IMG/VR virus record: IMGVR_UViG_3300027758_000008
Coordinates: 1 to 64,000 of that record
Reading direction: 5' to 3' (one strand)
From: a virus
Length of the DNA: 64,000 nucleotides
Positions 1,068 to 59,841 of this stretch are shown here, piece after piece (position 1 is the stretch's first letter; every line of letters starts with the position of its first letter). The position numbers and the translations under genes were made by a program. The notes below the pieces were generated by a model. It saw only the letters and a list, made by a program, of their open reading frames with translations, was not told the DNA's origin and ran no database searches.

Positions 1068-1104
1068 GGTTTAATCCTCATGGTTGATTTATAGTCATTC
1101 TAAC

Positions 1105-1140
1105 TGGTCAAACCACTAGACGCAATATTTATGGTATTGT
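1105..1140 (+). promoter_or_regulatory. Palindrome-type promoter P1 (accessory gene)
   Basis: The palindrome TGGTCAAACCA (1105-1115) is followed 30 bases after its first base by a -10-like TATTGT (1135-1140). No TTGACA-like -35 lies 16-18 bases upstream of the -10; the palindrome occupies that place. The same layout recurs at seven other sites in the window. The only gene downstream is the plus-strand ORF at 1161. Confidence 0.7.
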
Positions 1141-1160: not shown

Positions 1161-1442
1161 ATGAGCGGAACATTTACATTGGTGTCGGAGCAATTACCGC
1201 CTGAGCATGTGCCATTAATTGGCATCTCATTGGGGCCAAAACTTCACACAGTAATATTTGATGGGTGCAGGTTTATCGACAGAGCTAGCGGTAATGAGTT
1301 TGCCCTAGGCTGCATTATTGCTTGGTATGATATGAGCAAGCACGAAAAAAGCGACTGGCCTATTGTCGCTGGAAGTTTGCACGTTTGCGTAAACGCGCTT
1401 TTCTCAGCATTGGCTAACACTCAACATTCACAGAAAACCTAA
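1161..1442 (+). CDS. Accessory (moron-like) protein, unknown
   Basis: This 93-residue protein lies on the strand opposite the tail genes, with its own promoter (1105-1140) and a GGGAGGG ribosome binding site before ATG 1161. Its 3' end overlaps the tail terminator gene by 29 bases. No motif was recognised; the middle has a short hydrophobic stretch (GCIIAWY). In unit B the promoter is present but the gene is missing. That pattern fits a moron, a gene gained or lost independently of the tail module. Function is unknown; host-directed or superinfection roles are usual for morons but are not shown here. Confidence 0.7.
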   Translation: MSGTFTLVSEQLPPEHVPLIGISLGPKLHTVIFDGCRFIDRASGNEFALGCIIAWYDMSKHEKSDWPIVAGSLHVCVNALFSALANTQHSQKT

Positions 1443-4598: not shown

Positions 4599-5221
4599 TA
4601 CTGCCGCTCCTCCCATTCGAGTTGATAAAGAAATTCACTATCTGTCGTGCCGTTGATATTCGTAAACACCAGCAAGAAAGTATTCCCAGCCGCCACGCCT
4701 GACGCATTACCGCTTGCTGTGTAGCTTGAAGCCGCCCGACTACCGCCGCCCGATGTTGGCACAAGGTAGGACGTGCCTGTGCGCTTGGGTGCAGTTGTGC
4801 TGAATGCGGTTGCAATGCGTTTCTCAATCGTCACACCGCTTGTAGGGTGCGAATCCAAACCGCTAACAGATAGGTCGTTGTTAATCGGTGAAAGTTTGGT
4901 GCTTGTTACATCTGCCCACGAGCCGCCACTGATAGCCTCACTGCCGGTGAACGGGTAAACAATGTATTTGCGCCCACCAGCCCAGCCATTAATCAGGCGC
5001 AACTGTAGTTTTAGCGGGTAAACAGTTGTAAACCGATAGATGAGAATATCAGTATCAGCAATCGCATCTGCGCCGCTACAGTCGTCAAAGAACTTGAACT
5101 GTAAGTTAGCCTCAAAGCTTGATTGCTGATTATCTACAGCAAAGCGCGCAGTGTTTTTGTTTTGCGTGGTCAGCAGAAAGTCTGCCCACGCATTGGGAAT
5201 CAATCTATTCAGAATCGCCAT
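4598..5221 (-). CDS. Virion-associated protein, unknown (207 aa)
   Basis: This protein begins MAILNRLIPNAWADFLL and is rich in Ser, Thr and Gly with predicted beta structure. The preferred ATG at 5221 overlaps the end of the small gene 5205-5375; a longer in-frame start at 5320 would run deep into that gene. It ends in TAATG with the fibre gene, so the two are probably coupled. It is strongly conserved in unit B. Its place between capsid and fibre genes suggests a fibre base or head decoration protein, which is inference. Confidence 0.6.
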   Translation of the reverse strand: MAILNRLIPNAWADFLLTTQNKNTARFAVDNQQSSFEANLQFKFFDDCSGADAIADTDILIYRFTTVYPLKLQLRLINGWAGGRKYIVYPFTGSEAISGGSWADVTSTKLSPINNDLSVSGLDSHPTSGVTIEKRIATAFSTTAPKRTGTSYLVPTSGGGSRAASSYTASGNASGVAAGNTFLLVFTNINGTTDSEFLYQLEWEERQ

Positions 5222-5375
5222 TGTTCGCCACCTTCTTACGTCTCGTGCGCTTAGGCTTTGGTGCTTCTTCTGCCTCTTTAGGATTGAATTTAGCGTCGAT
5301 GATTTTGTAACCCTGAGCACGTAACTCTTTCTTGCGTTCAGGCGTTACAGGGTGAGGCTCGTAAATGACTTTCAT
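5205..5375 (-). CDS. Small conserved phage protein (56 aa)
   Basis: This 56-residue protein begins MKVIYEPHPVTPERKKELRAQG and ends with a very basic run (KPKRTRRKKV) before GDSE. Its end overlaps the next gene by 17 bases. Unit B has a 53-residue version with a three-codon deletion in the acidic linker. The basic tail could bind nucleic acid, but no function is known to me. The divergent promoter P2 lies just upstream. Confidence 0.6.
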   Translation of the reverse strand: MKVIYEPHPVTPERKKELRAQGYKIIDAKFNPKEAEEAPKPKRTRRKKVANNGDSE

Positions 5376-5386
5376 AGCTGTCTCAC

Positions 5387-5422
5387 TGGTTAGACCACTT
5401 GTTACGTACAGTTTACTATAAT
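5387..5422 (+). promoter_or_regulatory. Palindrome-type promoter P2 (cargo cassette)
   Basis: The palindrome TGGTTAGACCA (5387-5397) lies 30 bases, start to start, before a perfect TATAAT (5417-5422), with no -35 hexamer. It drives the plus-strand cassette 5455-6604 against the late operon. The unit B counterpart at 45105-45140 keeps both elements although the genes behind it are mostly different. Confidence 0.75.
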
Positions 5423-5454
5423 GGCTAGAGTTTAGGCAAATTTGGAGATTAACA

Positions 5455-5796
5455 ATGATTGGAAAGGACGTGACTGTGACGATTGGCGACAAGGAGCTTG
5501 ATTTTAATTTAAGCTCAGAGGTTATAGAGCCTATTGAATTTGAGTCGCAAGTAGCACAAGTAGGAAAGGGCTTCTCTTTTAACGCTGAAAGCACCGTCGA
5601 ATTTTCTGGTAGCGCTGAGTTTTCTGGAGTTGTAACCTATGATGACGGCATGGTAATGAAATTAAAAGGAATGAAAAGCACCGGCCCAAATCATTATTTT
5701 TCTTACAACTTCAAATGCGGGAGCATTTCAGTTAAGCGATACATGAAAACCAAATCAAAGCAGCCGCGAACGATTGCTGTTTGGCGTGAAATTTAA
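5455..5796 (+). CDS. Accessory cassette protein 1, unknown
   Basis: This 113-residue protein is the first gene after promoter P2, with a TTTGGAGA ribosome binding site. It reads as mostly beta strands (VTVTIGDKELDFNL, STVEFSGSAEFSGVVTYDDGMVMKLKG) with a basic C-terminus. No homologue is present in unit B and no family was recognised. Its location in a bounded cassette next to the capsid gene makes it a candidate host- or competitor-directed gene. Confidence 0.6.
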   Translation: MIGKDVTVTIGDKELDFNLSSEVIEPIEFESQVAQVGKGFSFNAESTVEFSGSAEFSGVVTYDDGMVMKLKGMKSTGPNHYFSYNFKCGSISVKRYMKTKSKQPRTIAVWREI

Positions 5797-5818
5797 TTAG
5801 GCAAATTTGGAGAAGGGA

Positions 5819-6001
5819 ATGGAAAAGAAGAGAAAAATGTTCAAAAAGAAAAAAATAAACATAAAGGTCGCCGAAGCTCAATCGCGCTACTTTTTTGCAT
5901 TTGCTGTCGCTGACGCGATGTTCAAAAGCGAAGTATGTGCAGAGGCCGTTGCTCAAGGGGCGTTTTTTAGAACACTAGGCTACAAAGTGAGGGTTAAGTG
6001 A
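5819..6001 (+). CDS. Accessory cassette protein 2, basic, unknown
   Basis: This 60-residue protein starts at ATG 5819 after TTTGGAGAAGGG. Its N-terminus is very basic (MEKKRKMFKKKKINIK), followed by a helix and a C-terminus ending LGYKVRVK. The same C-terminal ending occurs in the otherwise different first gene of the unit B cassette (45173-45322), so the two share a 3' module. Its stop overlaps the next start (TGATG). Function is unknown. Confidence 0.6.
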   Translation: MEKKRKMFKKKKINIKVAEAQSRYFFAFAVADAMFKSEVCAEAVAQGAFFRTLGYKVRVK

Positions 6002-6303
6002 TGTTTACATACATAGCAGTAAACGGCGCGGTAGTCGAAAATAATTACGGTGGCGGTTATGGCGGTGAGTGGATAAGCCCAATCGGCGGGAGGGGCGGCT
6101 CGTCCAACTTCGATGATGGGCAAAATCTTAACGGGGGATCGTGGAAGGCAATAGATGTTCCGTACTGGGAAAGGCGCGTCAAGCAGATTGGTAAGGGCAA
6201 GCGGCACTATTTTGCCCTTAATGGCTGGTGGCATTACATTGAGATTGATGACGCTCTACCGCCGCTAGTTAGTTGGTACATTGGGAGGGTAAGTGATGAT
6301 TAA
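6001..6303 (+). CDS. Accessory cassette protein 3 (Gly-rich, KQIGKGKRHYF family)
   Basis: This 100-residue protein has a glycine-rich N-terminal half (GGGYGGEWISPIGGRGGSS) and a C-terminal signature VPYWE-RRVKQIGKGKRHYF, then WHYIEIDDALPPL. The unit B cassette carries a clear homologue (45838-46140) that keeps GG spacing, the basic signature and the LPPL ending but differs in most other residues. It is the only whole gene shared by the two cassettes, which suggests it is a core part of the cargo system. No known family was recognised. Confidence 0.62.
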   Translation: MFTYIAVNGAVVENNYGGGYGGEWISPIGGRGGSSNFDDGQNLNGGSWKAIDVPYWERRVKQIGKGKRHYFALNGWWHYIEIDDALPPLVSWYIGRVSDD

Positions 6304-6604
6304 ATTAAACGCTATAGCAGCCATTGAACAATTCGAGAAATTCTGCGCTAGAGGTAGAGGTCACCTTGTAACAATAAAGAGGCCTGATGGAGAAAGTATC
6401 TGCCATCGCACTAATATTTTTATTATGACATTGAGTTGCAATTACAAAGGGAAGTATTCCGATGGCTCAATTTTTGGAAGGGTTGAATTTAATGCAGACT
6501 CAGAAAAGGGTGAAATAAATAAAATATTGCACGAAACATTCTCTGACATGAATAAAAGGATGAATGAATTTGACACGCCTGAAAAGAAGGATGTGTTCAC
6601 ATAA
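6296..6604 (+). CDS. Accessory cassette protein 4, unknown
   Basis: This 102-residue protein overlaps the preceding gene by a few bases and starts at ATG 6296 (GTGATG context). It begins with a helix (MIKLNAIAAIEQFEKFCARG) followed by beta strands and an acidic-basic helical C-terminus. It has no counterpart in unit B. The bidirectional terminator at 6606-6634 follows its stop at once. Confidence 0.55.
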   Translation: MIKLNAIAAIEQFEKFCARGRGHLVTIKRPDGESICHRTNIFIMTLSCNYKGKYSDGSIFGRVEFNADSEKGEINKILHETFSDMNKRMNEFDTPEKKDVFT

Positions 6605-6605
6605 C

Positions 6606-6634
6606 AAAAAGCCCCGCATAAGCAGGGCTTCTTT
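6606..6634. terminator. Bidirectional terminator between cassette and capsid genes
   Basis: The stem GCCCCGC/GCAGGGC with an ATAA loop is flanked by an A-run on the left and TTCTTT on the right, so it can act on both strands. It separates the plus-strand cassette from the convergent capsid gene and is kept in unit B. Confidence 0.75.
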
Positions 6635-6647
6635 ATCTTAACTAACC

Positions 6648-7607
6648 TTATGACTGGTCGCCAACAGTAAGCACCCCAGCAGTATGCTTGATGTCTGTTG
6701 CGACTTTATCCCAGTTAGTGCCGGTTGCAATTTCCGCATCGGTCGGAGATTTGCCGCCGTTGGTTTCATCCCACGCATAGCCCTTCAAGCCAAGACCAAA
6801 CGTGTAATCAACCTGCATTGTAGTTTCAATGCGCTGGTTGCCGTTAGTGGTCTCGATGTTGCTGATTACGTCGCCTGCATCATGAACTACTGCCGCACCT
6901 TCAACCAGTGAAAGCACTTTGTAGTCAGTGGTCGATACAGTCAGTGCTGGCGCATCGGTAACAACAACCATCTTGCCTAAGATATCCACAACGCGCACGT
7001 TTTGCGCTTGGAACAGCTGAGGCGTGTTAGTCAGGTTCTGACCAACCAAGTTGTGGTAAGTCGCACCATTCATAATCTGACAAACCAGATTGCCTGAGTG
7101 GTCACCAAACAGCGCATGAGCAGCGTTCATTGCTGAGTAGGTGACAGGGGCGGTCGCTGAAACGTCATTGGTAGCCGATGCCTGATTCTCGATAGCTGCA
7201 ACCAGTGCCGCAATAGCGGTGTTTAACTGGTCTTGCATCATAGCTTCAGCAAAGTTACGGCTGGCAACTTCGATACCGCGTGCGGTAGGTTGGCGCAACC
7301 AAGTAAGCTGTGAAGGCTCATAACGAATCGGGCCAAAGCCGCCAGCGATTTTAACGCTTGAGTGCTTCAACTGAGTCAGGTCAGTCGCAGACGCAGAAGA
7401 GTTAGACGCGTAACGGTCAACACGACGCTGCGCAGAGTGAATAGCCGCAAAGAATGATTCTTGCAGGAAGTCACCGTCGAAACCTTCTGTAGTCAAACGG
7501 ATTGCACCGGCAGACGCTTGGTTAAACTTATCAACCATCTGTGCCAGAGTTTCAATTGTGGCAGGCATGATATATTCGTTAAATACCTGCATATCTGATA
7601 AAGCCAT
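6648..7607 (-). CDS. Major capsid protein
   Basis: This 319-residue protein follows the scaffold gene directly, as expected of a coat protein. Conserved-looking parts include the N-terminal helix (FNEYIMPATIETLAQMVDKFNQAS) and the central RYEPSQLTWLRQPTARGIEVASRNF. It would assemble into the procapsid shell with the portal and scaffold. The unit B protein is almost identical except for a short patch near residue 157 (ATAPVTYS against ATDGISYS) and one L/K change. I assign it by order, size and near-invariance, not by a known motif. Confidence 0.82.
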   Translation of the reverse strand: MALSDMQVFNEYIMPATIETLAQMVDKFNQASAGAIRLTTEGFDGDFLQESFFAAIHSAQRRVDRYASNSSASATDLTQLKHSSVKIAGGFGPIRYEPSQLTWLRQPTARGIEVASRNFAEAMMQDQLNTAIAALVAAIENQASATNDVSATAPVTYSAMNAAHALFGDHSGNLVCQIMNGATYHNLVGQNLTNTPQLFQAQNVRVVDILGKMVVVTDAPALTVSTTDYKVLSLVEGAAVVHDAGDVISNIETTNGNQRIETTMQVDYTFGLGLKGYAWDETNGGKSPTDAEIATGTNWDKVATDIKHTAGVLTVGDQS

Positions 7608-9880: not shown

Positions 9881-9917
9881 AATTAACCTTTACCTGTTTT
9901 GCTCCAATTTTAGCCAC

Positions 9918-9928
9918 TGGTCTAACCA
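9918..9928. promoter_or_regulatory. Orphan operator-like palindrome
   Basis: TGGTCTAACCA lies in the 49-base gap between the portal and minor head genes. Unlike the other palindromes, no -10-like hexamer stands 30 bases away on either strand. It is kept in unit B (49437-49447). It may be a relic of a lost accessory promoter or a regulator site inside the late operon. Confidence 0.45.
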
Positions 9929-9929
9929 C

Positions 9930-11030
9930 TTACAAGCCCAATCGCTTAAATACTGTCGATTCCTCTTGCTCAAGCTCGTTTAATGTGATTGTGCGGCCTG
10001 TCATATCGGTGAATTTGGATAGCGATAATTTGCCATCGAGAAACAGTTTGGCCCTTGTGGTACCAAGCGATGATTCAACAAACCATCTAGGCTGTCTGCG
10101 TAACCATGCCTCGTGACTGGTGTCACTTCTAACCGTTGTCGGGTCGAATGCGTCTTTGTCACGCTTGCCTCTGTACTTTGGCTTACCATCCGTGCTGGCT
10201 TCTTTCTTCTCGAATGCTTCTTTTGCTGCCGGTCCTGATTTGCCGCCTATGGCAACCTGTTGGCCGGTTAACTCGAATCCTTCTGGACCGTAGATTAGTG
10301 TTGAGCGGCAGTTTGGGTGCAACGGAGGAATCGGTAACTTCGGGTCGTCAGCCTTAAATCGTTTCTTTGAGTTAGTCCGACAAATTAAACTAGTCCTGTT
10401 ATCCCACACGGCGACAAATATCGCCTCCTGATAGTATTTAGGATGCGCAGATACGTTAGCCCGCCTTGCCTGCTGTACGTAATGCGTGAAAGCTGTTCTG
10501 GCCAATGACTCAGCGCGGGTTTTCAGTGTACCGTCAAACTCAGCACGTATATTCTTTAGCACCTGGTTGACTGTCTCGGCGCGTGAATAGCCCTGTCGAA
10601 CCATTGACATAATGCGTTGATTTCTTCCAGCGTTATTGCCAGTAATGAATTCATCCCAGAAACCAGCCTGCTTTGACTGCTCCATGACAATCATTTGCTC
10701 ACCGATGAACGATAGAATCTCATTCTTTGCCGGTGGCGTTAGCTCAGTGTTGCGCAGCATGTAACGCACCTCATACAATGCCGCCTCTTGCATATCCTTG
10801 GTGTAATCTGCCCAGCCTGAATTCAACTCGATAATGCGTTGTATGCGCTTCTCGATAGTCTCAAGCTGCTTTGGTGTGCGTGGCAAGCCGCCGTCGATGA
10901 TGAGCAGCCTGATTAGCCGGTACGTTTCCTCTAACCCTGGATAAACAGACGCGTTGATATACCCTGAATTTAACCTATCAAGGTATACCTCGTGCATTAA
11001 TTGTGCGTCTAGGTTTATTGTGATTGTCAT
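9930..11030 (-). CDS. Minor head protein (SPP1 gp7 / Mu gpF-like)
   Basis: This 366-residue protein carries the gpF-type signature: AVWDNRTSLICRTNSKKRF followed by PPLHPNCRSTLIYG. Such proteins sit inside the head near the portal and help early DNA ejection or capsid assembly. The ATG overlaps the stop of the SGNH gene by one base (ATTAAAG context). In unit B the second motif reads PPLHYFCRS and the gene is coupled directly to the large terminase. The C-terminal 100 residues are basic. Confidence 0.78.
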   Translation of the reverse strand: MTITINLDAQLMHEVYLDRLNSGYINASVYPGLEETYRLIRLLIIDGGLPRTPKQLETIEKRIQRIIELNSGWADYTKDMQEAALYEVRYMLRNTELTPPAKNEILSFIGEQMIVMEQSKQAGFWDEFITGNNAGRNQRIMSMVRQGYSRAETVNQVLKNIRAEFDGTLKTRAESLARTAFTHYVQQARRANVSAHPKYYQEAIFVAVWDNRTSLICRTNSKKRFKADDPKLPIPPLHPNCRSTLIYGPEGFELTGQQVAIGGKSGPAAKEAFEKKEASTDGKPKYRGKRDKDAFDPTTVRSDTSHEAWLRRQPRWFVESSLGTTRAKLFLDGKLSLSKFTDMTGRTITLNELEQEESTVFKRLGL

Positions 11031-17091: not shown

Positions 17092-17127
17092 ATTATAACG
17101 GGTTAATTTTGTTTTGTGGTTTGACCA
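17092..17127 (-). promoter_or_regulatory. Palindrome-type promoter P3 (early operon, minus strand)
   Basis: On the minus strand TGGTCAAACCA (17127 to 17117) lies 30 bases, start to start, before a perfect TATAAT (17097 to 17092). It sits between 17129-17329 and the gene starting at 17065, so it drives the minus-strand block down to the terminator at 14266. The same element stands at 54880-54915 in unit B. Confidence 0.75.
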
Positions 17128-17128
17128 G

Positions 17129-17329
17129 TTAGTCTAAGTCTGGAATAACTACAAATCGAACAATATAGCCGTCGCTGCGACTAAACCATTCACCTTCTAC
17201 AACTTCAAAATTTCCATTTGTGACGGTACTTCCTGTCAGTATAAAGTTATCACCGTGGGCATGATGAAAAATATCACCATGCTTTACATCGTCGTCAGGA
17301 CCTAAAACTCTAGCTTTAACTTCCGGCAT
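17129..17329 (-). CDS. Small early protein, unknown (66 aa)
   Basis: This 66-residue protein starts at ATG 17329 in a TGATG overlap with the preceding gene. It reads as a small beta protein (ARVLGPDDDVKHGDIFHHAHGDNFIL) ending FVVIPDLD. Its stop lies two bases from the operator of promoter P3. There is no counterpart at the matching place in unit B. Function is unknown. Confidence 0.5.
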   Translation of the reverse strand: MPEVKARVLGPDDDVKHGDIFHHAHGDNFILTGSTVTNGNFEVVEGEWFSRSDGYIVRFVVIPDLD

Positions 17330-18566: not shown

Positions 18567-18782
18567 TCACCGTTTTGTGGTGTCGATGTCGTCTACCGCA
18601 CCAGCATGCAGTTCATCGACAGGTAACCGCCCTTTTGACTTAATCCATACTTGACCGTCTTTGTCGATACAGTCGCCGCGCTTAATCCAGTTGTGCAACT
18701 GCGTTTCCGTTCGACCTGTCGCCTTAGCTGCTGCGTATACGCTGCCGTAAGCTTGTTTGATGTGTTGTGATAGTGGTTTCAT
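18567..18782 (-). CDS. Small Cro-like DNA-binding protein (71 aa)
   Basis: This 71-residue protein contains PLSQHIKQAYGSVYAAAKATGRTETQLHNWIKRGDCIDKDGQVWIKSKGRL, a helix-turn-helix with a beta hairpin like that of small phage regulators. It overlaps the PAPS-reductase-like gene by four bases. A homologous domain is the central part of 55653-56009 in unit B. It is a candidate, among several, for the regulator of the palindrome promoters. Confidence 0.6.
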   Translation of the reverse strand: MKPLSQHIKQAYGSVYAAAKATGRTETQLHNWIKRGDCIDKDGQVWIKSKGRLPVDELHAGAVDDIDTTKR

Positions 18783-20003: not shown

Positions 20004-20189
20004 TCAAGTATGCCCTAATGAATTTCGTTTGCAAGTACTTTTCGTTATTATTTTATCTGGTCGTACCACTTCACACTCACACCCTGGAAACCGTTCCCGC
20101 AAACTCTGCTCGATGTCGTCGGCATCGGATAGCATGGCGAATTGGTATTTTTTGCCTTTGTAGGTCAGTTTTATTTGGTAGGGTTTCAT
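20004..20189 (-). CDS. Origin-proximal conserved small protein (61 aa)
   Basis: This 61-residue protein reads MKPYQIKLTYKGKKYQFAMLSDADDIEQSLRERFPGCECEVV and then diverges from its unit B homologue (56486-56656). It is the first gene beyond the iteron array in both units, although arrays and primases differ. It could be an accessory replication protein or simply the conserved edge of the exchanged block. Confidence 0.6.
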   Translation of the reverse strand: MKPYQIKLTYKGKKYQFAMLSDADDIEQSLRERFPGCECEVVRPDKIITKSTCKRNSLGHT

Positions 20190-23834: not shown

Positions 23835-25303
23835 AAACTAGCCTCTATTCTCTTAGCTTCTGCGTAGTCTTTTGGTCCAGGCTTCTTGCCTCCTCTGGCC
23901 ATATAAACGTTGACTGCCCACCCACTGGCATTCTTCATGCCGCGCCGCTTGCCAAGCGCTATCAAGTCACGCAATCCGTTTGCCTGCCCCTGCTCCTGTC
24001 GGGCTCGTTTTCGCTCTGCCTGTACCGCTGCCATATCTACTTGCTCTAGCTCGCCCTCAACCTCGTTTAACTTGCGCTCTTTCTTCTCTACCGGAGCTCC
24101 GCACATTGGGCATGCGTCAACACCAGACTTGAACACCGCGTAACACTGCCCGCACTGAGACACATTTACGTCTGGCTCGTCGTCTTTCTTTTTGCGTCTT
24201 TTTGGTTCATCTCCTGATAAAGACCATTCACGTTTTTCACACGGCAAACCATGTTTAACTATACATCCTGCATGGTCAAGTATGACAGCCGGGTTAGGCT
24301 TCTTACGCATAGCCCTGAACACCATCTGCAGGTATCGCGCAACAGACTGTGTAGGCCTAAGCAGTATGCAGCATTCAAGTGTACAGTCTCTGCCCACCTG
24401 CGCGGACAAATCGAAACCCTCTATAACTAGTTCGCAATTACATAAGACCTTGTAGCGACCGTCAGCCAGCCCCATACAGGCATCTTTTATTTCGCCCTCC
24501 GTGCTTGTTCCGTCCACGTGTATAGCCGGCACGCCTGAATCATTGAAAGCTTGTGCAGTTTGCTTGCTGTGCTTAACGTTTACGCAATAACAGACTGTGC
24601 GCAGACCGTTAGCCAATTTTTTCCAGTGACTAACCGCGTCGCCTACAATTGATGGTTTAGACATAGCGCCGGCTAACTGGTCTTTGTTGTAGTCACCGCC
24701 GGCGTTTTTAACGTCTGACAGGTCAGGGCTAACTGGGGTTGTGTAGGCGACGTAATTGGAAAGCCTACGTTGCTTTATAAGCCATGCAGTTGACTTAGCC
24801 TCTATCATTTCGTCAAATAAGTCACCTAGCGCTTTACCGTCAAGACGCTTAGGCGTTCCGGTTAGCCCTATAACCAAAGCGCCATTGTCGCGAGCCCAAT
24901 TAATGACGGTCTCGAACATGTTGCCTTTAGCCAGATGCGCCTCGTCTATAAACATGATTCGAGGCGGTGCCAGTCTCTCAAGCCTGCTGTAAACAGTACC
25001 GATGGTGCCAATCTGGACGGGTAGCTTTGATTGACGACGTCCACTAGTGATTAGGCCGTGTTCAATCTTGGCAGACCAGAAAGACTTATCGGTCTGACGT
25101 AGCAGGTTCTTTCTGTGAACCAAAAACCAAACGCTTGTATGCGGGTTTTTAGCTTGTGCCTCTTGCGTGATGTAGCCTGCAACCACGGTTTTCCCGAATG
25201 CTGGGCTGGCCACGCCCAAAACAGATTTACACCCTTTGGCCACTGCCGCGCGTAAGTTGTGCACGAATTCAGCCTGGTCCTCATATAGCTGGAATTGGCT
25301 CAT
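23831..25303 (-). CDS. SF2 DEAH helicase with zinc finger (unit A)
   Basis: This 490-residue helicase has motif I ASPAFGKTVVAGY, motif II IDEAHLAKG, motif III-like GLTGTPKR and a C-terminal helicase half with VFRAMRKKP. A four-cysteine finger (CGQC, then CPMC) near residue 390 and a basic C-terminus follow. It would remodel forks or recombination intermediates. Its ATG overlaps the stop of the 57-residue HTH gene by four bases, so regulator and helicase are co-transcribed. Confidence 0.85.
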   Translation of the reverse strand: MSQFQLYEDQAEFVHNLRAAVAKGCKSVLGVASPAFGKTVVAGYITQEAQAKNPHTSVWFLVHRKNLLRQTDKSFWSAKIEHGLITSGRRQSKLPVQIGTIGTVYSRLERLAPPRIMFIDEAHLAKGNMFETVINWARDNGALVIGLTGTPKRLDGKALGDLFDEMIEAKSTAWLIKQRRLSNYVAYTTPVSPDLSDVKNAGGDYNKDQLAGAMSKPSIVGDAVSHWKKLANGLRTVCYCVNVKHSKQTAQAFNDSGVPAIHVDGTSTEGEIKDACMGLADGRYKVLCNCELVIEGFDLSAQVGRDCTLECCILLRPTQSVARYLQMVFRAMRKKPNPAVILDHAGCIVKHGLPCEKREWSLSGDEPKRRKKKDDEPDVNVSQCGQCYAVFKSGVDACPMCGAPVEKKERKLNEVEGELEQVDMAAVQAERKRARQEQGQANGLRDLIALGKRRGMKNASGWAVNVYMARGGKKPGPKDYAEAKRIEASL

Positions 25304-25473
25304 TGGTTGGCCTCCAGGTAGTCAGACAGCTTTTTTACTGTGACGTAACTAGGGTTAGGCGCCTTGCCTGTTTTCACTGCAGATATAAACTGCCGCGTCA
25401 TTCCTACAGACTTGGCAACAGCGCTTATATTGCGGTCACTTAGTCTCTGTTTTATTTCATCTAGTGTAAGCAT
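25300..25473 (-). CDS. Cro-like HTH regulator (57 aa)
   Basis: This 57-residue protein reads MLTLDEIKQRLSDRNISAVA, then KSVGMTRQFISAVKTGKAPN, a clear Xre-type helix-turn-helix with little else. It is the first gene of the minus-strand replication operon and faces the divergent exonuclease gene. Position and size match Cro. Unit B has an unrelated-looking YdaS/Cro-type gene in the same place (59500-59739), so the two phages probably differ in early control. No partner repressor was found. Confidence 0.75.
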   Translation of the reverse strand: MLTLDEIKQRLSDRNISAVAKSVGMTRQFISAVKTGKAPNPSYVTVKKLSDYLEANQ

Positions 25474-27320: not shown

Positions 27321-27353
27321 TAAGGCAAGCCGGCTCAACAGGGCCGGCTCCAC

Positions 27354-27389
27354 TGGTCAAACCACCTTGGCGCGTAGAGATGGTATATT
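27354..27389 (+). promoter_or_regulatory. Palindrome-type promoter P4 (pentapeptide operon)
   Basis: TGGTCAAACCA (27354-27364) lies 30 bases, start to start, before TATATT (27384-27389), preceded by ATGG as at P1. No -35 is present. A start of transcription near 27396 would leave a short leader with GGAGGGGG before ATG 27412. Confidence 0.75.
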
Positions 27390-27411
27390 GTAGGAAATGG
27401 AGGGGGATAAA

Positions 27412-28119
27412 ATGATTGAAATAAAAAACAGATTTACAGGGGGAATTATCCACAGTGGTGATTTCCAAAGCGTTAAAGAATGTTTGCTTGATGCTATTAA
27501 AAATGACGCAAACCTACGGGGCGCAAACCTACGGGGCGCAGACCTACGGTACGCAAACCTAGAGGACGCAAACCTACGGGGCGCAGACCTACGGTACGCA
27601 AACCTAGAGGACGCAAACCTACTGGGCGCAAACCTACTGGACGCAGACCTAGGGGACGCAGACCTACGGTACGCAGACCTACTGGGCGCAAACCTACGGT
27701 ACGCAGACCTAGGGGACGCAGACCTAGGGGGCGCAAACCTAGGGGGCGCAAACCTAGGGGACGCAGACCTAGGGGGCGCAAACCTAGGGGGCGCAAACCT
27801 ACGGTACGCAAACCTACGGGGCGCAGACCTACGGTACGCAAACCTAGGGGACGCAGACCTACGTTGGTGTGCTGGCAATAAATGCGAAATCAAATCACTA
27901 TGGTTTAGTGATGTATACCCAATAACCTATACATCGGAATATATGCAAATTGGCTGTGAGCGTCACAAAATTGCCGATTGGTGGGAATTTGACGACAAGC
28001 GCATTTTAAAAATGGATGGTAAAACTGCATTGAAGTTTTGGCGGGAAAATAAAGATTTGATTAAGCAGATTGTTGACGCCAATCCAGCCAAGCCTACAGG
28101 CAAGGAGTCTGACAAATGA
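27412..28119 (+). CDS. Pentapeptide-repeat protein
   Basis: This 235-residue protein has a 30-residue N-terminal part, 24 consecutive pentapeptides of the A(N/D)L(R/G/L/E)(G/D/Y) type (about residues 33-152), and a C-terminal domain (GNKCEIKSLWFSD to FWRENKDLIKQIV). The repeats should form a right-handed quadrilateral helix like that of Qnr and MfpA, which mimic DNA and bind gyrase. Whether this one does is unknown. ATG 27412 is chosen because of GGAGGGGG; ATG 27397 would be nearly leaderless. Confidence 0.82.
   Translation: MIEIKNRFTGGIIHSGDFQSVKECLLDAIKNDANLRGANLRGADLRYANLEDANLRGADLRYANLEDANLLGANLLDADLGDADLRYADLLGANLRYADLGDADLGGANLGGANLGDADLGGANLGGANLRYANLRGADLRYANLGDADLRWCAGNKCEIKSLWFSDVYPITYTSEYMQIGCERHKIADWWEFDDKRILKMDGKTALKFWRENKDLIKQIVDANPAKPTGKESDK
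27510..27866 (+). repeat. Tandem 15-base repeats inside the pentapeptide gene
   Basis: About 24 units of a 15-base sequence (GC-A-AACCTA or GC-A-GACCTA followed by CGG/GGG/GAG/CTG and GGC/GAC/TAC) follow one another. Ala is always GCA and Leu always CTA, so synonymous variation is almost absent. This points to recent expansion or gene conversion. Changes in unit number would keep the frame. Confidence 0.85.
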
Positions 28120-29016: not shown

Positions 29017-29192
29017 GTCAGGGTGTCTTATTCGGATACAGTGAAACATATTACGAGATACACGCGTATCTAATTGATGTCTGCTCGTATTCTAACGAGG
29101 CTGCACATGATTACATTTTAGAGGCTTGCCCGCATGTGCTGGCGCATGATTTTGTGCCAGCGCCCGTTACAAGTTTGGAGTATGAAGAATGA
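29013..29192 (+). CDS. Small early protein (59 aa)
   Basis: This 59-residue ORF starts at GTG 29013, overlapping the previous stop (GTGA). It reads MSQGVLFGYSETYYEIHAYLIDVCSYSNEAAHDYILEACPHVLAHDF. It is acidic and helical. Its stop overlaps the next ATG. No family was recognised; tight coupling on both sides is the main evidence that it is real. Confidence 0.5.
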   Translation: MSQGVLFGYSETYYEIHAYLIDVCSYSNEAAHDYILEACPHVLAHDFVPAPVTSLEYEE

Positions 29193-29374
29193 CCAAAAAC
29201 ACAGGCAAAGCATCGTCGCCAGGATACCGAAAAGTCGCGACAATATACTGCCCAATCTACGGCTACGAGATAGAGCGCACTATTTGCGAGCACGACGATG
29301 TTTGGCTTGTTGACGTTTGGGGCGTTCCGTATCGGTGGGAGTGGGTGAAATCAGTGAAGGTGTATTGGCGATGA
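29189..29374 (+). CDS. Small early protein (61 aa)
   Basis: This 61-residue protein has GYRKVATIYCPIYGYEIERTICEHDDVWLVDVWG, a small beta-type fold with two Cys and many aromatics. It overlaps both neighbours in the ATGA manner. Function is unknown. Confidence 0.5.
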   Translation: MTKNTGKASSPGYRKVATIYCPIYGYEIERTICEHDDVWLVDVWGVPYRWEWVKSVKVYWR

Positions 29375-29640
29375 ATATGGAGCCGTTTAATTTTTGCATA
29401 CAATGGATGGTGTACGATTATTTGCCAACCCTGAAAACCGGAGACTTCCTACCTGGTCAACTTTGCATGCCCGATAGGATAGGCGTTGAGCGAAAGACGT
29501 ATCGAGAAGTGTTACGCGTTCTGGATTTCCATGGAGTTATAAGTGTCAAGCATGGCAAACCCACAAAGTTCATAAGCCTTAACAAGCCTGGACTGCTGTA
29601 CGTCATGGAGCGTAAAGGCTTAACTGGTCAAACCACATAA
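29371..29640 (+). CDS. Winged-helix DNA-binding protein (89 aa)
   Basis: This 89-residue protein starts at ATG 29371. It has LKTGDFLPGQLCMPDRIGVERKTYREVLRVLDFHGVISVKHGKPTKFI, close to the GntR-type winged helix (L-PG, then recognition helix and wing with G-V). Its last codons overlap the palindrome of promoter P5, so a protein bound there would sit at the end of this gene. It is a plausible candidate for the palindrome-binding regulator, but no direct link is visible. Confidence 0.6.
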   Translation: MNMEPFNFCIQWMVYDYLPTLKTGDFLPGQLCMPDRIGVERKTYREVLRVLDFHGVISVKHGKPTKFISLNKPGLLYVMERKGLTGQTT

Positions 29641-40990: not shown

Positions 40991-41027
40991 GGTTTAATCC
41001 TCATGGTTGATTTATAGTCATTCTAAC

Positions 41028-41063
41028 TGGTCAAACCACTAGACGCAATATTTATGGTATTGT
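41028..41063 (+). promoter_or_regulatory. Palindrome-type promoter P1' without a gene
   Basis: TGGTCAAACCA (41028-41038) and TATTGT (41058-41063) are identical to P1 of unit A. The accessory gene that follows P1 in unit A is missing: after TGTGGGG the sequence passes directly into the 3' end of the tail terminator gene. Confidence 0.7.
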
Positions 41064-45093: not shown

Positions 45094-45104
45094 AGCTGTC
45101 TCAC

Positions 45105-45140
45105 TGGTTAGACCACTTGTTACGTACAGTTTACTATAAT
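45105..45140 (+). promoter_or_regulatory. Palindrome-type promoter P2' (cargo cassette B)
   Basis: TGGTTAGACCA (45105-45115) lies 30 bases, start to start, before a perfect TATAAT (45135-45140), identical to P2 of unit A, and is followed by the same leader with GGCAAATTTGGAGA before a different first gene. Confidence 0.75.
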
Positions 45141-45172
45141 GGCTAGAGTTTAGGCAAATTTGGAGAAGGGGA

Positions 45173-45322
45173 ATGATTGAATCAATAGAGCATGCAAGGC
45201 TATTGTACAGAAATGAATACCGCCTTTGCGCTGAAGTTCTCAGGCTGCCAATTAAGCGTTGCGAGAAAAGAGCACAGGCGGCTTACTTCAAGGCGCTAGG
45301 CTACAAAGTGAGGGTTAAGTGA
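45173..45322 (+). CDS. Cassette B protein 1 (49 aa)
   Basis: This 49-residue protein reads MIESIEHARLLYRNEYRLCAEVL and ends AAYFKALGYKVRVK. The last eight residues equal those of cassette A protein 2 (5819-6001). The ribosome binding site TTTGGAGAAGGGG is shared with that gene as well, so the two genes occupy equivalent places with different middles. The stop overlaps the next ATG. Function is unknown. Confidence 0.55.
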   Translation: MIESIEHARLLYRNEYRLCAEVLRLPIKRCEKRAQAAYFKALGYKVRVK

Positions 45323-45684
45323 TGAATACGCTAACATTAAGGTCATACGAGTGTACTTTAGATATTCAACGCGAGCAGGGCGTGACGCTGGATGCATTTT
45401 CCCACTCTAGTGTGCTAATCGACCCTCATCGCTACCACCTTGAATTTGAAACAGAGGATACAGAAAGATTTGAACTTGGGGAGAAGTGGGATGTTGCCAT
45501 TATTGAATATCGCGACCTTAAAGCATCAAACCCGGCGCTAGCTATTAACGAAGCGCAGAGGTTTGTTTATTCTGGAGCAACATACCACGGAACATTTATC
45601 GTTCAACATAAGTGGGAGCACGGAGTTGAAATGGTTTGCGAAGGTGAGCTTATAGGTGTGATGGAGGGCATTGGTGATGAGTGA
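45322..45684 (+). CDS. Cassette B protein 2, unknown (120 aa)
   Basis: This 120-residue, acidic, beta-rich protein (LTLRSYECTLDIQREQGVTLDAFSHSSVLIDPHRYHLEFETED, then EMVCEGELIGVMEGIGDE) has no counterpart in unit A. It overlaps the next gene by eight bases. No family was recognised. Confidence 0.55.
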   Translation: MNTLTLRSYECTLDIQREQGVTLDAFSHSSVLIDPHRYHLEFETEDTERFELGEKWDVAIIEYRDLKASNPALAINEAQRFVYSGATYHGTFIVQHKWEHGVEMVCEGELIGVMEGIGDE

Positions 45685-45838
45685 AGAAGATTACGAATAC
45701 ATATTCCGTGATAGGCACGAATCAAGCATTCCGTATATTGACGCGGGGGATTTGGATGATATACGCATTGACGGTAGTTTTTCACTTGGTGAGCTTGAGC
45801 GGCTTGTGTGGGCATTAAAGGATAGGGAGGGCAAGTGA
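45677..45838 (+). CDS. Cassette B protein 3 (53 aa)
   Basis: This 53-residue acidic protein reads MSEEDYEYIFRDRHESSIPY, then IDAGDLDDIRIDGSFSLGEL, ending in a basic helix. It overlaps both neighbours, its stop sharing bases with the next start (TGATG). It has no unit A counterpart. A strongly acidic small protein in such a cassette could be an inhibitor, but nothing shows this. Confidence 0.5.
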   Translation: MSEEDYEYIFRDRHESSIPYIDAGDLDDIRIDGSFSLGELERLVWALKDREGK

Positions 45839-46140
45839 TGATTAAAGAAACAGCAGTAAACGGCCCGTCATTTGTAAGTCGCTGCGGTGGCGGTCATGGC
45901 GGTGCGTGGATAAGCACAAGCGGCGGGAGCGCTGGATCATCTAGCTTTGGCATCAAAAGCCTTGAAGTTGACACGCGGAAGGGGGTAAGCGTTCCGTACT
46001 GGGAAAAGCGCGTCAAGCAGATTGGAAAAGGTAAGCGGCATTATTTTTATATTGACAAAATGTGGCACTACATTGAGCTTGATGAAGTCTTGCCGCCACT
46101 TATTCATTACAATGTCAGAATAACAAAAAGCCCCGCGTAA
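45838..46140 (+). CDS. Cassette B protein 4 (Gly-rich, KQIGKGKRHYF family)
   Basis: This 100-residue protein is homologous to 6001-6303: it keeps GGGHGGAWIS, the signature VPYWE-KRVKQIGKGKRHYF, WHYIELDEVLPPL, and the approximate glycine pattern, but many other residues differ. It is much more diverged than the flanking virion genes. Its stop codon lies in the loop of the terminator hairpin. Function is unknown. Confidence 0.62.
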   Translation: MIKETAVNGPSFVSRCGGGHGGAWISTSGGSAGSSSFGIKSLEVDTRKGVSVPYWEKRVKQIGKGKRHYFYIDKMWHYIELDEVLPPLIHYNVRITKSPA

Positions 46141-46153
46141 GCAGGGCTTCTTT
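46125..46153. terminator. Bidirectional terminator (unit B)
   Basis: GCCCCGC/GCAGGGC stem with flanking A and TTCTTT runs, the counterpart of 6606-6634. It also contains the last codons of cassette B protein 4. Confidence 0.75.
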
Positions 46154-49399: not shown

Positions 49400-49436
49400 A
49401 ATTAACCTTTACTCGTTTTGCTCCAATTTTAGCCAC

Positions 49437-49447
49437 TGGTCTAACCA
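49437..49447. promoter_or_regulatory. Orphan operator-like palindrome (unit B)
   Basis: TGGTCTAACCA between portal and minor head genes, identical to 9918-9928 and likewise without a -10 box at the expected distance. Confidence 0.45.
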
Positions 49448-49448
49448 C

Positions 49449-50549
49449 TTACAAGCCCAATCGCTTAAATACTGTCGATTCCTCTTGCTCAAGCTCGTTT
49501 AATGTGATTGTGCGTCCTGTCATATCCGTGAATTTGGATAGCGATAATTTACCGTCAAGAAACAATTTAGCCCTTGTGGTGCCAAGCGATGATTCAACAA
49601 ACCATCTAGGCTGTCTGCGCAACCATGCCTCGTGGCTGGTATCGCTTCTAACTGTTGTCGGGTCGAATGCGTCTTTGTCGCGCTTGCCTCGATACTTGGG
49701 TTTGCCATCTGTGCGGGCTTCTTTCTTCTCAAACGCCTCTTTTGCTGCCGGTCCTGATTTACCGCCTATGGCAACCTGCTGACCTGTTAGCTCGAATCCT
49801 TCGGGCCCATAGATTAGTGTGCTACGACAAAAATAGTGGAGAGGAGGAACCGGTAACTTCGGGTCATCAGCCTTAAACCGTTTTTTAGAATTGTTGCGAC
49901 ATATCAAACTAGTCCGATTATCCCACACAGCAACGAATATCGCTTCCTGATAGTACTTAGGGTGCGCAGATACATTGGCTCGTCTCGCCTGTTGTACGTA
50001 ATGCGTGAAGGCTGTTCTGGCTAATGACTCAGCGCGGGTTTTCAGTGTGCCGTCAAACTCAGCGCGGATATTCTTTATCACCTGATTAACTGTCTCGGCG
50101 CGTGAATAGCCCTGTCGAACCATTGACATAATGCGCTGATTGCGTCCGGCGTTATTACCAGTGATGAATTCATCCCAGAAGCCAGCCTGCTTTGACTGCT
50201 CCATGACAATCATTTGCTCGCCGATAAACGATAGGATTTCATTTCTCGCCGGTGGCGTTAGCTCAGTATTGCGAAGCATGTAACGCACTTCATACAATGC
50301 CGCCTCTTGCATATCCTTGGTGTAATCGGCCCAGCCTGAGTTCAATTCGATGATGCGTTGTATGCGCTTCTCGATAGTCTCAAGCTGTTTTGGCGTGCGT
50401 GGTAAGCCGCCGTCAAGAATAAGCAGCCTGATTAACCGGTACGTTTCCTCTAACCCTGGATACACAGACGCGTTGATATACCCTGAATTTAACCTATCAA
50501 GGTATACCTCGTGCATTAATTGTGCGTCTAGGTTTATTGTGATTGTCAT
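49449..50549 (-). CDS. Minor head protein (SPP1 gp7 / Mu gpF-like, unit B)
   Basis: This 366-residue copy of 9930-11030 has the second gpF motif as PPLHYFCRSTLIYG instead of PPLHPNCRS, and CRNNSKK instead of CRTNSKK. Its ATG overlaps the large terminase stop (ATGA), because the SGNH fibre gene found here in unit A is absent. Confidence 0.78.
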   Translation of the reverse strand: MTITINLDAQLMHEVYLDRLNSGYINASVYPGLEETYRLIRLLILDGGLPRTPKQLETIEKRIQRIIELNSGWADYTKDMQEAALYEVRYMLRNTELTPPARNEILSFIGEQMIVMEQSKQAGFWDEFITGNNAGRNQRIMSMVRQGYSRAETVNQVIKNIRAEFDGTLKTRAESLARTAFTHYVQQARRANVSAHPKYYQEAIFVAVWDNRTSLICRNNSKKRFKADDPKLPVPPLHYFCRSTLIYGPEGFELTGQQVAIGGKSGPAAKEAFEKKEARTDGKPKYRGKRDKDAFDPTTVRSDTSHEAWLRRQPRWFVESSLGTTRAKLFLDGKLSLSKFTDMTGRTITLNELEQEESTVFKRLGL

Positions 50550-54879: not shown

Positions 54880-54915
54880 ATTATAACGGGTTAATTTTGT
54901 TTTGTGGTTTGACCA
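54880..54915 (-). promoter_or_regulatory. Palindrome-type promoter P3' (unit B)
   Basis: Minus-strand TGGTCAAACCA (54915 to 54905) lies 30 bases, start to start, before a perfect TATAAT (54885 to 54880). Surrounding bases are nearly identical to P3 of unit A, but the genes on both sides differ. Confidence 0.75.
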
Positions 54916-54916
54916 G

Positions 54917-55105
54917 TTAGTCGTCGCACCAAGCCTCGACATCTTCCCATTCGCCGTCTTGAATATCCCCTTTACTCATTATGTTGCCAACAATATCTGT
55001 ACCAAAGTCTTCTAGGTCATTTTGAAACTCGTCGAATTCCTCCTCTGTCATATCTACCACTTTTGAGTACCTGATTATTTCTGTCGCCGTAATTCTTACT
55101 TTCAT
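54917..55105 (-). CDS. Small acidic early protein (62 aa)
   Basis: This 62-residue protein begins MKVRITATEIIRYSKVVDMTEEEFDEFQNDLEDFG and ends EDVEAWCDD. The first strand and helix plus a high Asp/Glu content are typical of small phage early proteins. Its stop lies two bases from the P3' operator. No unit A homologue was seen. Confidence 0.5.
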   Translation of the reverse strand: MKVRITATEIIRYSKVVDMTEEEFDEFQNDLEDFGTDIVGNIMSKGDIQDGEWEDVEAWCDD

Positions 55106-59499: not shown

Positions 59500-59739
59500 T
59501 TATTGCTCCACCCAAGTTAACACGTCTGGCCGCAACTCCTCTTTTTTGAAGTAGCCTTTTGTCAGCCTTTCAACTTCTATAGCCATGGTCGCTGGTATCC
59601 TCCCTCTTTTTTCCCAATACTGCACAGCTTGTCTTGTTACGTTAAGCTGCTCAGCAAGCCTGGCCTTACTTCCTACCCATTCTATGAGCCGGTTAAGCTC
59701 AACCCTTTGCTGTATCTCTATATGTTTAGCTGATTTCAT
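59500..59739 (-). CDS. YdaS/Cro-like regulator
   Basis: This 79-residue protein starts at ATG 59739 (MKSAKHIEIQQRVELNRLIEW). The HTH follows: VGSKARLAEQLNVTRQAVQYWEKRGRIPATMAIEVERLT. The pattern is that of YdaS/Cro-type regulators. It is the first gene of the leftward replication operon and is followed by one base and the primase start. A longer start at 59796 would overlap the divergent promoter and is less likely. Confidence 0.75.
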   Translation of the reverse strand: MKSAKHIEIQQRVELNRLIEWVGSKARLAEQLNVTRQAVQYWEKRGRIPATMAIEVERLTKGYFKKEELRPDVLTWVEQ

Positions 59740-59841
59740 ATTTTTACCTGATGTTTTACATTTTATTTTACAAAGTGTTTGACAAGCATAATTCAATAGT
59801 TCTATGATTACAACCGTTGAAGAGAGAAAGAGGAGGATATT
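59740..59841. promoter_or_regulatory. Divergent early control region B
   Basis: Rightward, TTGACA (59779-59784) and TATGAT (59803-59808) with 18-base spacing face the Sak4-like gene. Leftward, TTGTCA and AT-rich -10-like sequences face the regulator gene. Two TTTTACA direct repeats eleven bases apart (near 59755-59772) are candidate operator parts for the YdaS/Cro-like protein. No TGGTYWRACCA palindrome is present. Confidence 0.6.

What the first reader, a model, noticed from the sequence alone, without database searches (positions are those of the whole stretch)
5387..6634. Promoter-to-terminator cargo slot beside the major capsid gene
In unit A the slot holds four plus-strand genes (5455-6604). 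In unit B the same slot (45105-46153) holds four mostly different ones. Promoter, leader, terminator and flanking virion genes are conserved. The cargo runs against the late operon and has its own switch. This is the structure of an exchangeable accessory locus like the moron or anti-defence hotspots of other phages. It may carry host-takeover, exclusion or counter-defence functions.
Basis: partly seen in the sequence, partly recalled or inferred. Interest (0 to 1): 0.75.

Follow-up and report, generated by a model that had tools for sequence, protein, structure and literature searches.

The report
Dispersed phage accessory-gene regulon with shared switch
The gene slot next to the capsid gene is one of several swappable slots in a family of environmental phages, all headed by the same promoter, whose binding site also sits inside the phage's late (virion-gene) promoters, suggesting one regulator turns accessory genes on while holding virion genes off.

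Summary
At 5387-6634 (A) and 45105-46153 (B) a conserved promoter, leader and hairpin bracket short plus-strand orphan genes running against the late operon. A third allele (C, L061) has the same promoter and last gene. Cargo is mosaic: one gene is shared (about 50-66% identity, purifying selection), others are allele-specific. In most of about 40 capsid relatives the site is empty, so it is a true insertion. Correction: the terminator is a hairpin that most empty-site relatives also carry behind the capsid gene.

The larger finding is the promoter. Its 15-bp near-palindrome ACTGGTNNNACCACT replaces the -35 box, 17-18 nt before a -10, and recurs at the variable cargo blocks of A, B and C and in about 30 other viral contigs; two distant phages have 12-13 operator loci, with antisense cargo punctuating the late operon. 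The operator also forms the spacer of TTGnnn-17-TAnnnT promoters facing portal, scaffold and tail genes. I infer a dual switch (cargo on, late off). The operator matches the published FadR consensus AACTGGTCNGACCAGTT, and no regulator-like phage protein is shared by all carriers, so a host FadR-type regulator is possible but unproven. Cargo function is unknown.

The parts
5385..5399 (+). Operator ACTGGTTAGACCACT of slot 1, unit A, in the -35 position (class II)
   Evidence: identical in unit B, one mismatch in C
5417..5422 (+). -10 hexamer TATAAT, 17 nt after the operator
   Evidence: a -10 at 17-18 nt at 64 of 100 unique oriented operator sites vs 3.5 expected
5432..5448 (+). Leader repeat TTAGGCAAATTTGGAGA, copy 1 (before A1)
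5455..5796 (+). Cargo gene A1, 113 aa, private to allele A, no known relative
5797..5813 (+). Leader repeat, copy 2 (before A2): likely footprint of insertion of A1
5819..6001 (+). Cargo gene A2, 60 aa; last codons shared with B1 and C1
6001..6303 (+). Cargo gene A3, 100 aa, orthologue of B4 and C4, under purifying selection
6296..6604 (+). Cargo gene A4, 102 aa, private to allele A
6606..6634 (.). Hairpin with T-rich tails on both strands: 3' hairpin of the capsid gene that also ends the cargo stretch
6648..7607 (-). Major capsid gene (phrog_247), flank of the slot
5205..5375 (-). 56-aa gene, other flank; a homologue or other small gene directly follows the capsid gene in most relatives
45103..45117 (+). 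Operator of slot 1, unit B
45173..45322 (+). Cargo gene B1, 49 aa (shares C-terminal codons with A2)
45322..45684 (+). Cargo gene B2, 120 aa, private to allele B
45677..45838 (+). Cargo gene B3, 53 aa, orthologue in allele C (83% identity)
45838..46140 (+). Cargo gene B4, 100 aa, orthologue of A3; its last codons run into the hairpin
46125..46153 (.). Capsid 3' hairpin, unit B
1103..1117 (.). Operator of slot 2, unit A: class II promoter for + cargo and class I (spacer) promoter TTGCGT-17-TAGAAT for the - strand 138-aa late gene
1161..1442 (+). Antisense cargo gene of slot 2 (93 aa); absent in B, one of five genes in C; dN/dS about 0.16 vs C
41026..41040 (.). Operator of slot 2, unit B: promoter kept, cargo absent
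9916..9930 (-). Operator inside the 17-nt spacer of TTGTAA-17-TAAAAT upstream of the portal gene (class I)
49435..49449 (-). Same class I portal site, unit B
17115..17129 (-). Class II operator-promoter, slot 4; 72-nt conserved island between A and B
54903..54917 (-). Class II operator-promoter, slot 4, unit B
27352..27366 (+). Class II operator-promoter, slot 5 (heads the pentapeptide-repeat gene 27397-28119 in A); 56-nt island
29623..29637 (+). Class II operator-promoter, slot 6; 50-nt island; overlaps the 3' end of a GntR-like gene (29317-29640)

Best explanation
The slot is one of several exchangeable accessory-gene slots that form a phage regulon. Shown by sequence: each slot opens with an operator-promoter in which a 15-bp near-palindrome takes the place of the -35 box, 17-18 nt before a -10; homology between units A and B stops just behind that promoter and unrelated small genes follow; the same operator also lies inside the 17-bp spacer of promoter-like sequences facing late genes, sometimes with one operator serving both directions. 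Inferred: one DNA-binding protein occupies the operator, recruits RNA polymerase to the accessory promoters and blocks it at the late promoters, so accessory genes run before the late genes and stop when the protein is lost or inactivated. Inferred: new cargo arrives by recombination between conserved islands (promoter-leader, coupled gene starts). Possible but unproven: the binder is a host GntR regulator of the FadR type. Plausible but unproven: the cargo are early host-directed or counter-defence proteins; A3/B4/C4 is the conserved one.
For: Operator: CTGGTNNNACCA 13 times in the record, 0 in the reversed control; ACTGGTNNNACCA absent from 14 records of capsid or tape-measure relatives. Of 100 unique oriented operator sites, 64 have a -10 at 17-18 nt (random positions: mean 3.5, max 12 in 2000 draws) and 20 are class I (mean 0.95, max 5); counts include units related by descent. 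Eight distinct operators face cargo one way and a late-type promoter the other. A/B homology ends 2-39 nt behind the -10 at all five sites (0 of 200,000 draws); at three the promoter is an island of 50-72 nt in divergent DNA. Cargo coding: dN/dS 0.16-0.40. G007 and G030 have antisense cargo blocks between late genes, most headed by the operator. Slots 4-6 lie outside the virion-gene operon. FadR consensus AACTGGTCNGACCAGTT (PMC3626644); family consensus TNGTNNNACNA (PMC2230225). No convincing non-structural DNA-binding protein is shared by A, B and G007 or by all carriers.
Against: No expression or binding data. Several class II promoters have an extended -10 (TGn), so a repressor could also act there. 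At slot 1 there is no class I promoter on the other strand. GntR-like matches occur in A, D and (weakly) C and G014, and G007 has an HTH gene behind an operator, so a phage-encoded regulator is possible. Several Vibrio and Pseudoalteromonas phages lack the motif, and the host is unknown.
Confidence: 0.6

Rival explanations
1. Independent moron: slot 1 is a stand-alone moron, or small set of morons, with its own constitutive promoter; the other sites are unrelated to it.
For: Insertion between adjacent late genes, own promoter, orphan cargo, empty in relatives.
Against: The same operator-promoter heads the other variable blocks with fixed spacing, and no cassette-owned terminator is seen.
Confidence: 0.12
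2. Common repressor: the operator-binding protein only represses, silencing both cargo and late promoters (for example in a carrier state); extended -10 motifs let cargo promoters work without a -35.
For: Several class II sites have TGn before the -10; class I geometry is classical for repression.
Against: Strict 17-18 nt operator spacing and the missing -35 are unexplained by simple repression; no integrase was found.
Confidence: 0.25
3. Phage-encoded regulator (a variant of the best explanation that differs only in the binder): a small, fast-diverging phage HTH protein, for example the GntR-like 29317-29640 in A, the Cro-like 18567-18782, or the HTH gene G007:4706-5080, binds the operator.
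For: GntR-like hits in A and D; HTH gene directly behind an operator in G007.
Against: None of these is detectably conserved across carriers whose operators are the same.
Confidence: 0.35

Closest known systems
Phage morons (own-promoter accessory genes in late operons, e.g. P22 pid, PMC3573128)
   Same: Small orphan genes inserted between adjacent late genes, with their own promoter, absent in relatives.
   Different: Here several slots share one operator-promoter, the terminator is the capsid gene's own hairpin, and the operator also sits in late promoters.
PeSL mobile regulatory cassettes of T4-like phages (Arbiol et al. 2010; Comeau et al. 2014, both cited in PMC4503421)
   Same: Conserved regulatory islands between shuffled accessory genes, proposed to mediate recombination.
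   Different: PeSLs are early promoter plus stem-loop in T4-like phages; here no joined stem-loop is seen, but a palindromic operator at -35 and a second placement in late promoters.
Early anti-defence regulons of archaeal viruses (PMC11065993)
   Same: Diverse unrelated accessory genes united by one conserved regulatory sequence.
   Different: Archaeal TATA/BRE promoters with a proposed viral wHTH repressor; here bacterial -10 promoters, many cargo blocks antisense in the late operon, no shared viral regulator found.
FadR-regulated bacterial promoters
   Same: Operator matches the published consensus AACTGGTCNGACCAGTT (PMC3626644); FadR is known (own knowledge, not tested here) to activate fabA/fabB from near -40 and to repress fad genes.
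   Different: These are phage promoters; binding by FadR is untested and the host is unknown.

Membership tests
Moron / accessory insertion | Inserted between genes that are adjacent in relatives | tested here: met
   Most capsid relatives have the 56-aa homologue or another small gene directly behind the capsid gene
Moron / accessory insertion | Own promoter | tested here: met
   Conserved -10 plus operator, (sequence only, no transcript data)
Moron / accessory insertion | Own terminator | tested here: not met
   A hairpin is present behind the capsid gene in most empty-site relatives; slots 2 and 3 overlap the converging late gene instead
Moron / accessory insertion | Expressed from the prophage or independently of the lytic programme | not testable with these tools
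   No transcriptome; no integrase found
PeSL cassette | Promoter joined to a stem-loop between shuffled genes | tested here: inconclusive
   No stem-loop was evident by eye in the 50-72 nt promoter islands, but they were not folded
Shared-promoter accessory regulon | Same regulatory sequence upstream of several unrelated accessory genes in one genome | tested here: met
Shared-promoter accessory regulon | At least one member shown to be an anti-defence protein | not tested
   Slot 1 cargo are orphans; a DNA methyltransferase-like protein lies in one G007 block
FadR-controlled promoter | Operator matches the FadR consensus | tested here: met
   TGGTNNNACCA core; some carriers have ACTGGTCNGACCA vs PMC3626644 and PMC2230225
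FadR-controlled promoter | FadR binds it | not testable with these tools
   Host unknown; no binding data

The most novel reading that the evidence does not exclude
A widespread group of environmental phages has put its dispersed, swappable accessory genes and its late virion promoters under one host metabolic regulator of the FadR type, used as an activator at the former and a repressor at the latter, so that the host cell's metabolic state helps time the switch from host takeover to virion production.
Probability: 0.25. Interest if true: 0.9.

Novelty: new variant of a known kind. Interest (0 to 1): 0.72.

Why it matters
It gives a simple DNA signature (ACTGGTNNNACCAC, 17-18 nt, TAnnnT) that points to accessory genes across many phage contigs with otherwise different genes, as was done for anti-defence genes in archaeal viruses (PMC11065993), and it makes testable how phages time accessory genes against virion genes. 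If a host regulator is the binder, it would link phage gene timing directly to host metabolism.

Tried and rejected
AlphaFold of the A3/B4/C4 family gave mean pLDDT 35 and was not used. The standard sigma-70 scan missed the slot promoter because it has no -35. Cro-like HTH genes at the divergent early junction were considered as the binder and rejected: they look unrelated between A and B while the operators are identical. The GntR-like gene of A was set aside because no match was found in B, G007 or most carriers. HutC/DasR-type operators (TGGT-N4-ACCA, own knowledge) were rejected for wrong spacing. Searches for cultured phages carrying the regulon found none among 14 named records (one single match in Salmonella phage Jersey). 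Prophage interpretation: no integrase detected in five records. PADLOC: no hit for slot 1 or slot 2 cargo. Paper searches for phage promoters tied to FadR found nothing relevant.

Full report
1. The slot. Between the 56-aa gene (5205-5375, minus) and the capsid gene (6648-7607, minus) lie four plus-strand ORFs of 113, 60, 100 and 102 aa; in unit B, 49, 120, 53 and 100 aa. Promoter and hairpin copies are far beyond chance. A scan of IMG/VR with the promoter finds five contigs: three identical to A, one identical to B, and one new allele C (L061). Scans with the shared cargo gene, the conserved RBS junction and the 207-residue neighbour gene give the same five contigs. C has the same promoter and leader, a private first gene ending in the shared C-terminal codons, a private gene with one predicted hydrophobic segment, orthologues of B3 and B4, and the hairpin; its capsid region has no detectable match to the capsid of A and B and an HNH-like gene follows the hairpin. 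Shared slot 1 genes have dN/dS 0.20-0.40, and the slot 2 gene 0.16, so they are real genes. They diverge far more than the flanks (capsid dS 0.21, A3/B4 dS 0.82).

2. Empty site. In most of the roughly 40 other capsid relatives a homologue of the 56-aa gene, or another small gene, starts within about 10-100 nt of the capsid stop; L038 instead shows an HNH-like gene. Most of them have a hairpin in that gap (predicted folding). So the slot is an insertion next to a pre-existing hairpin, which now also closes the cargo stretch. This corrects the promoter-to-terminator description.

3. The operator-promoter. Upstream of TATAAT there is no -35 box but ACTGGTTAGACCACT, ending 17 nt before the -10. 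The motif recurs. In A, B and C it heads blocks where the genomes differ: slot 2 (A one gene, B none, C five genes), slot 3 (C only, at a gene junction that is closed in A and B), slots 4, 5 and 6. In A versus B homology ends 2-39 nt behind the -10 at all five sites, and at three sites the promoter alone is conserved. A2, B1 and C1 share a 29-nt junction, and A1 sits between two copies of the leader, which suggests recombination at short conserved islands (inference).

4. Spread. Two pattern scans of IMG/VR found about 30 further contigs; most have several sites and almost none the reversed control. G007 (43 kb) and G030 (45 kb) have 13 and 12 operator loci and antisense blocks of small genes between terminase, portal, scaffold and tail genes, most of them headed by the operator. 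Some G007 cargo is recognisable: a DNA methyltransferase-like protein (phrog_757), a small regulator, a weak Nmad5-like match. Capsid, terminase and tape-measure relatives among named phages lack the motif (one single match in Salmonella phage Jersey).

5. Second placement. At the portal gene of A, B and C the operator lies in the spacer of TTGTAA-17-TAAAAT; at slot 2 the same operator serves the cargo one way and TTGCGT-17-TAGAAT towards a 138-aa late gene the other way; in G007 it is the spacer of promoters for scaffold and tail genes. Thirteen distinct class I and 54 distinct class II promoters were counted; both exceed random positions, with the caveat that related units are not independent. 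Ten cases (eight distinct) share one operator in both directions.

6. Mechanism. Fixed operator spacing and no -35 argue for activation at class II; an operator in the spacer argues for repression at class I. I commit to a dual regulator that runs accessory genes while late genes are held off (0.6, whoever encodes it). A common repressor remains possible (0.25). Slots 4-6 lie outside the virion-gene operon, which fits early timing, but there are no expression data.

7. Who binds. The half-sites equal the published FadR consensus AACTGGTCNGACCAGTT (PMC3626644) and the GntR/FadR family core TNGTNNNACNA (PMC2230225). Apart from likely chance matches of short or antisense ORFs and helicases of a generic kind, only structural proteins are shared by A, B and G007, and no DNA-binding protein is common to all carriers. 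This favours a host protein, but small diverged phage proteins can be missed; GntR-like matches exist in A, D and weakly in C and G014.

8. Function. All slot 1 cargo tested are orphans. Orphan, exchangeable, own-promoter genes are typical of counter-host or counter-defence cargo (general knowledge), but nothing here shows it. Known relatives in concept: morons (PMC3573128), PeSLs of T4-like phages (as cited in PMC4503421), and archaeal anti-defence regulons (PMC11065993).

Noticed in passing
window 39923/39924: The A-to-B join may be an assembly product: contig G005 (L057) closes A onto itself with 2,160 nt exact, so A looks like a complete genome of 39,923 nt followed by part of B.
   Followed up: partly
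window 29317-29640: GntR-like winged-helix ORF whose last codons (GLTGQTT) are encoded by the operator itself; in B an unrelated gene ends in the same residues.
   Followed up: partly
window 25300-25473 and 59500-59796: Cro-like HTH genes at the divergent early junction look unrelated between A and B.
   Followed up: partly
L061 1753-2271: HNH-like gene between the hairpin and an unrelated capsid gene in allele C; L038 also has an HNH-like gene at this site. Assigned by eye, no family search run.
   Followed up: no
window 18567-18782: Small HTH-like genes with a swappable N-terminal part and a shared C-terminal part across A, B, C, F15 and H10.
   Followed up: no
window 20057-20068: A further operator copy inside a conserved 61-aa gene, next to TAAAAT on the minus strand, without a clear -35; purpose unknown.
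   Followed up: no
window 27397-28119: Pentapeptide-repeat gene headed by the slot 5 promoter in A, unrelated genes there in B.
   Followed up: no
G002 40100-67220 (L075, L076): This contig follows A and then switches, near a short conserved island at A 29188-29225, to a third related unit (D): natural recombinant or assembly switch.
   Followed up: no
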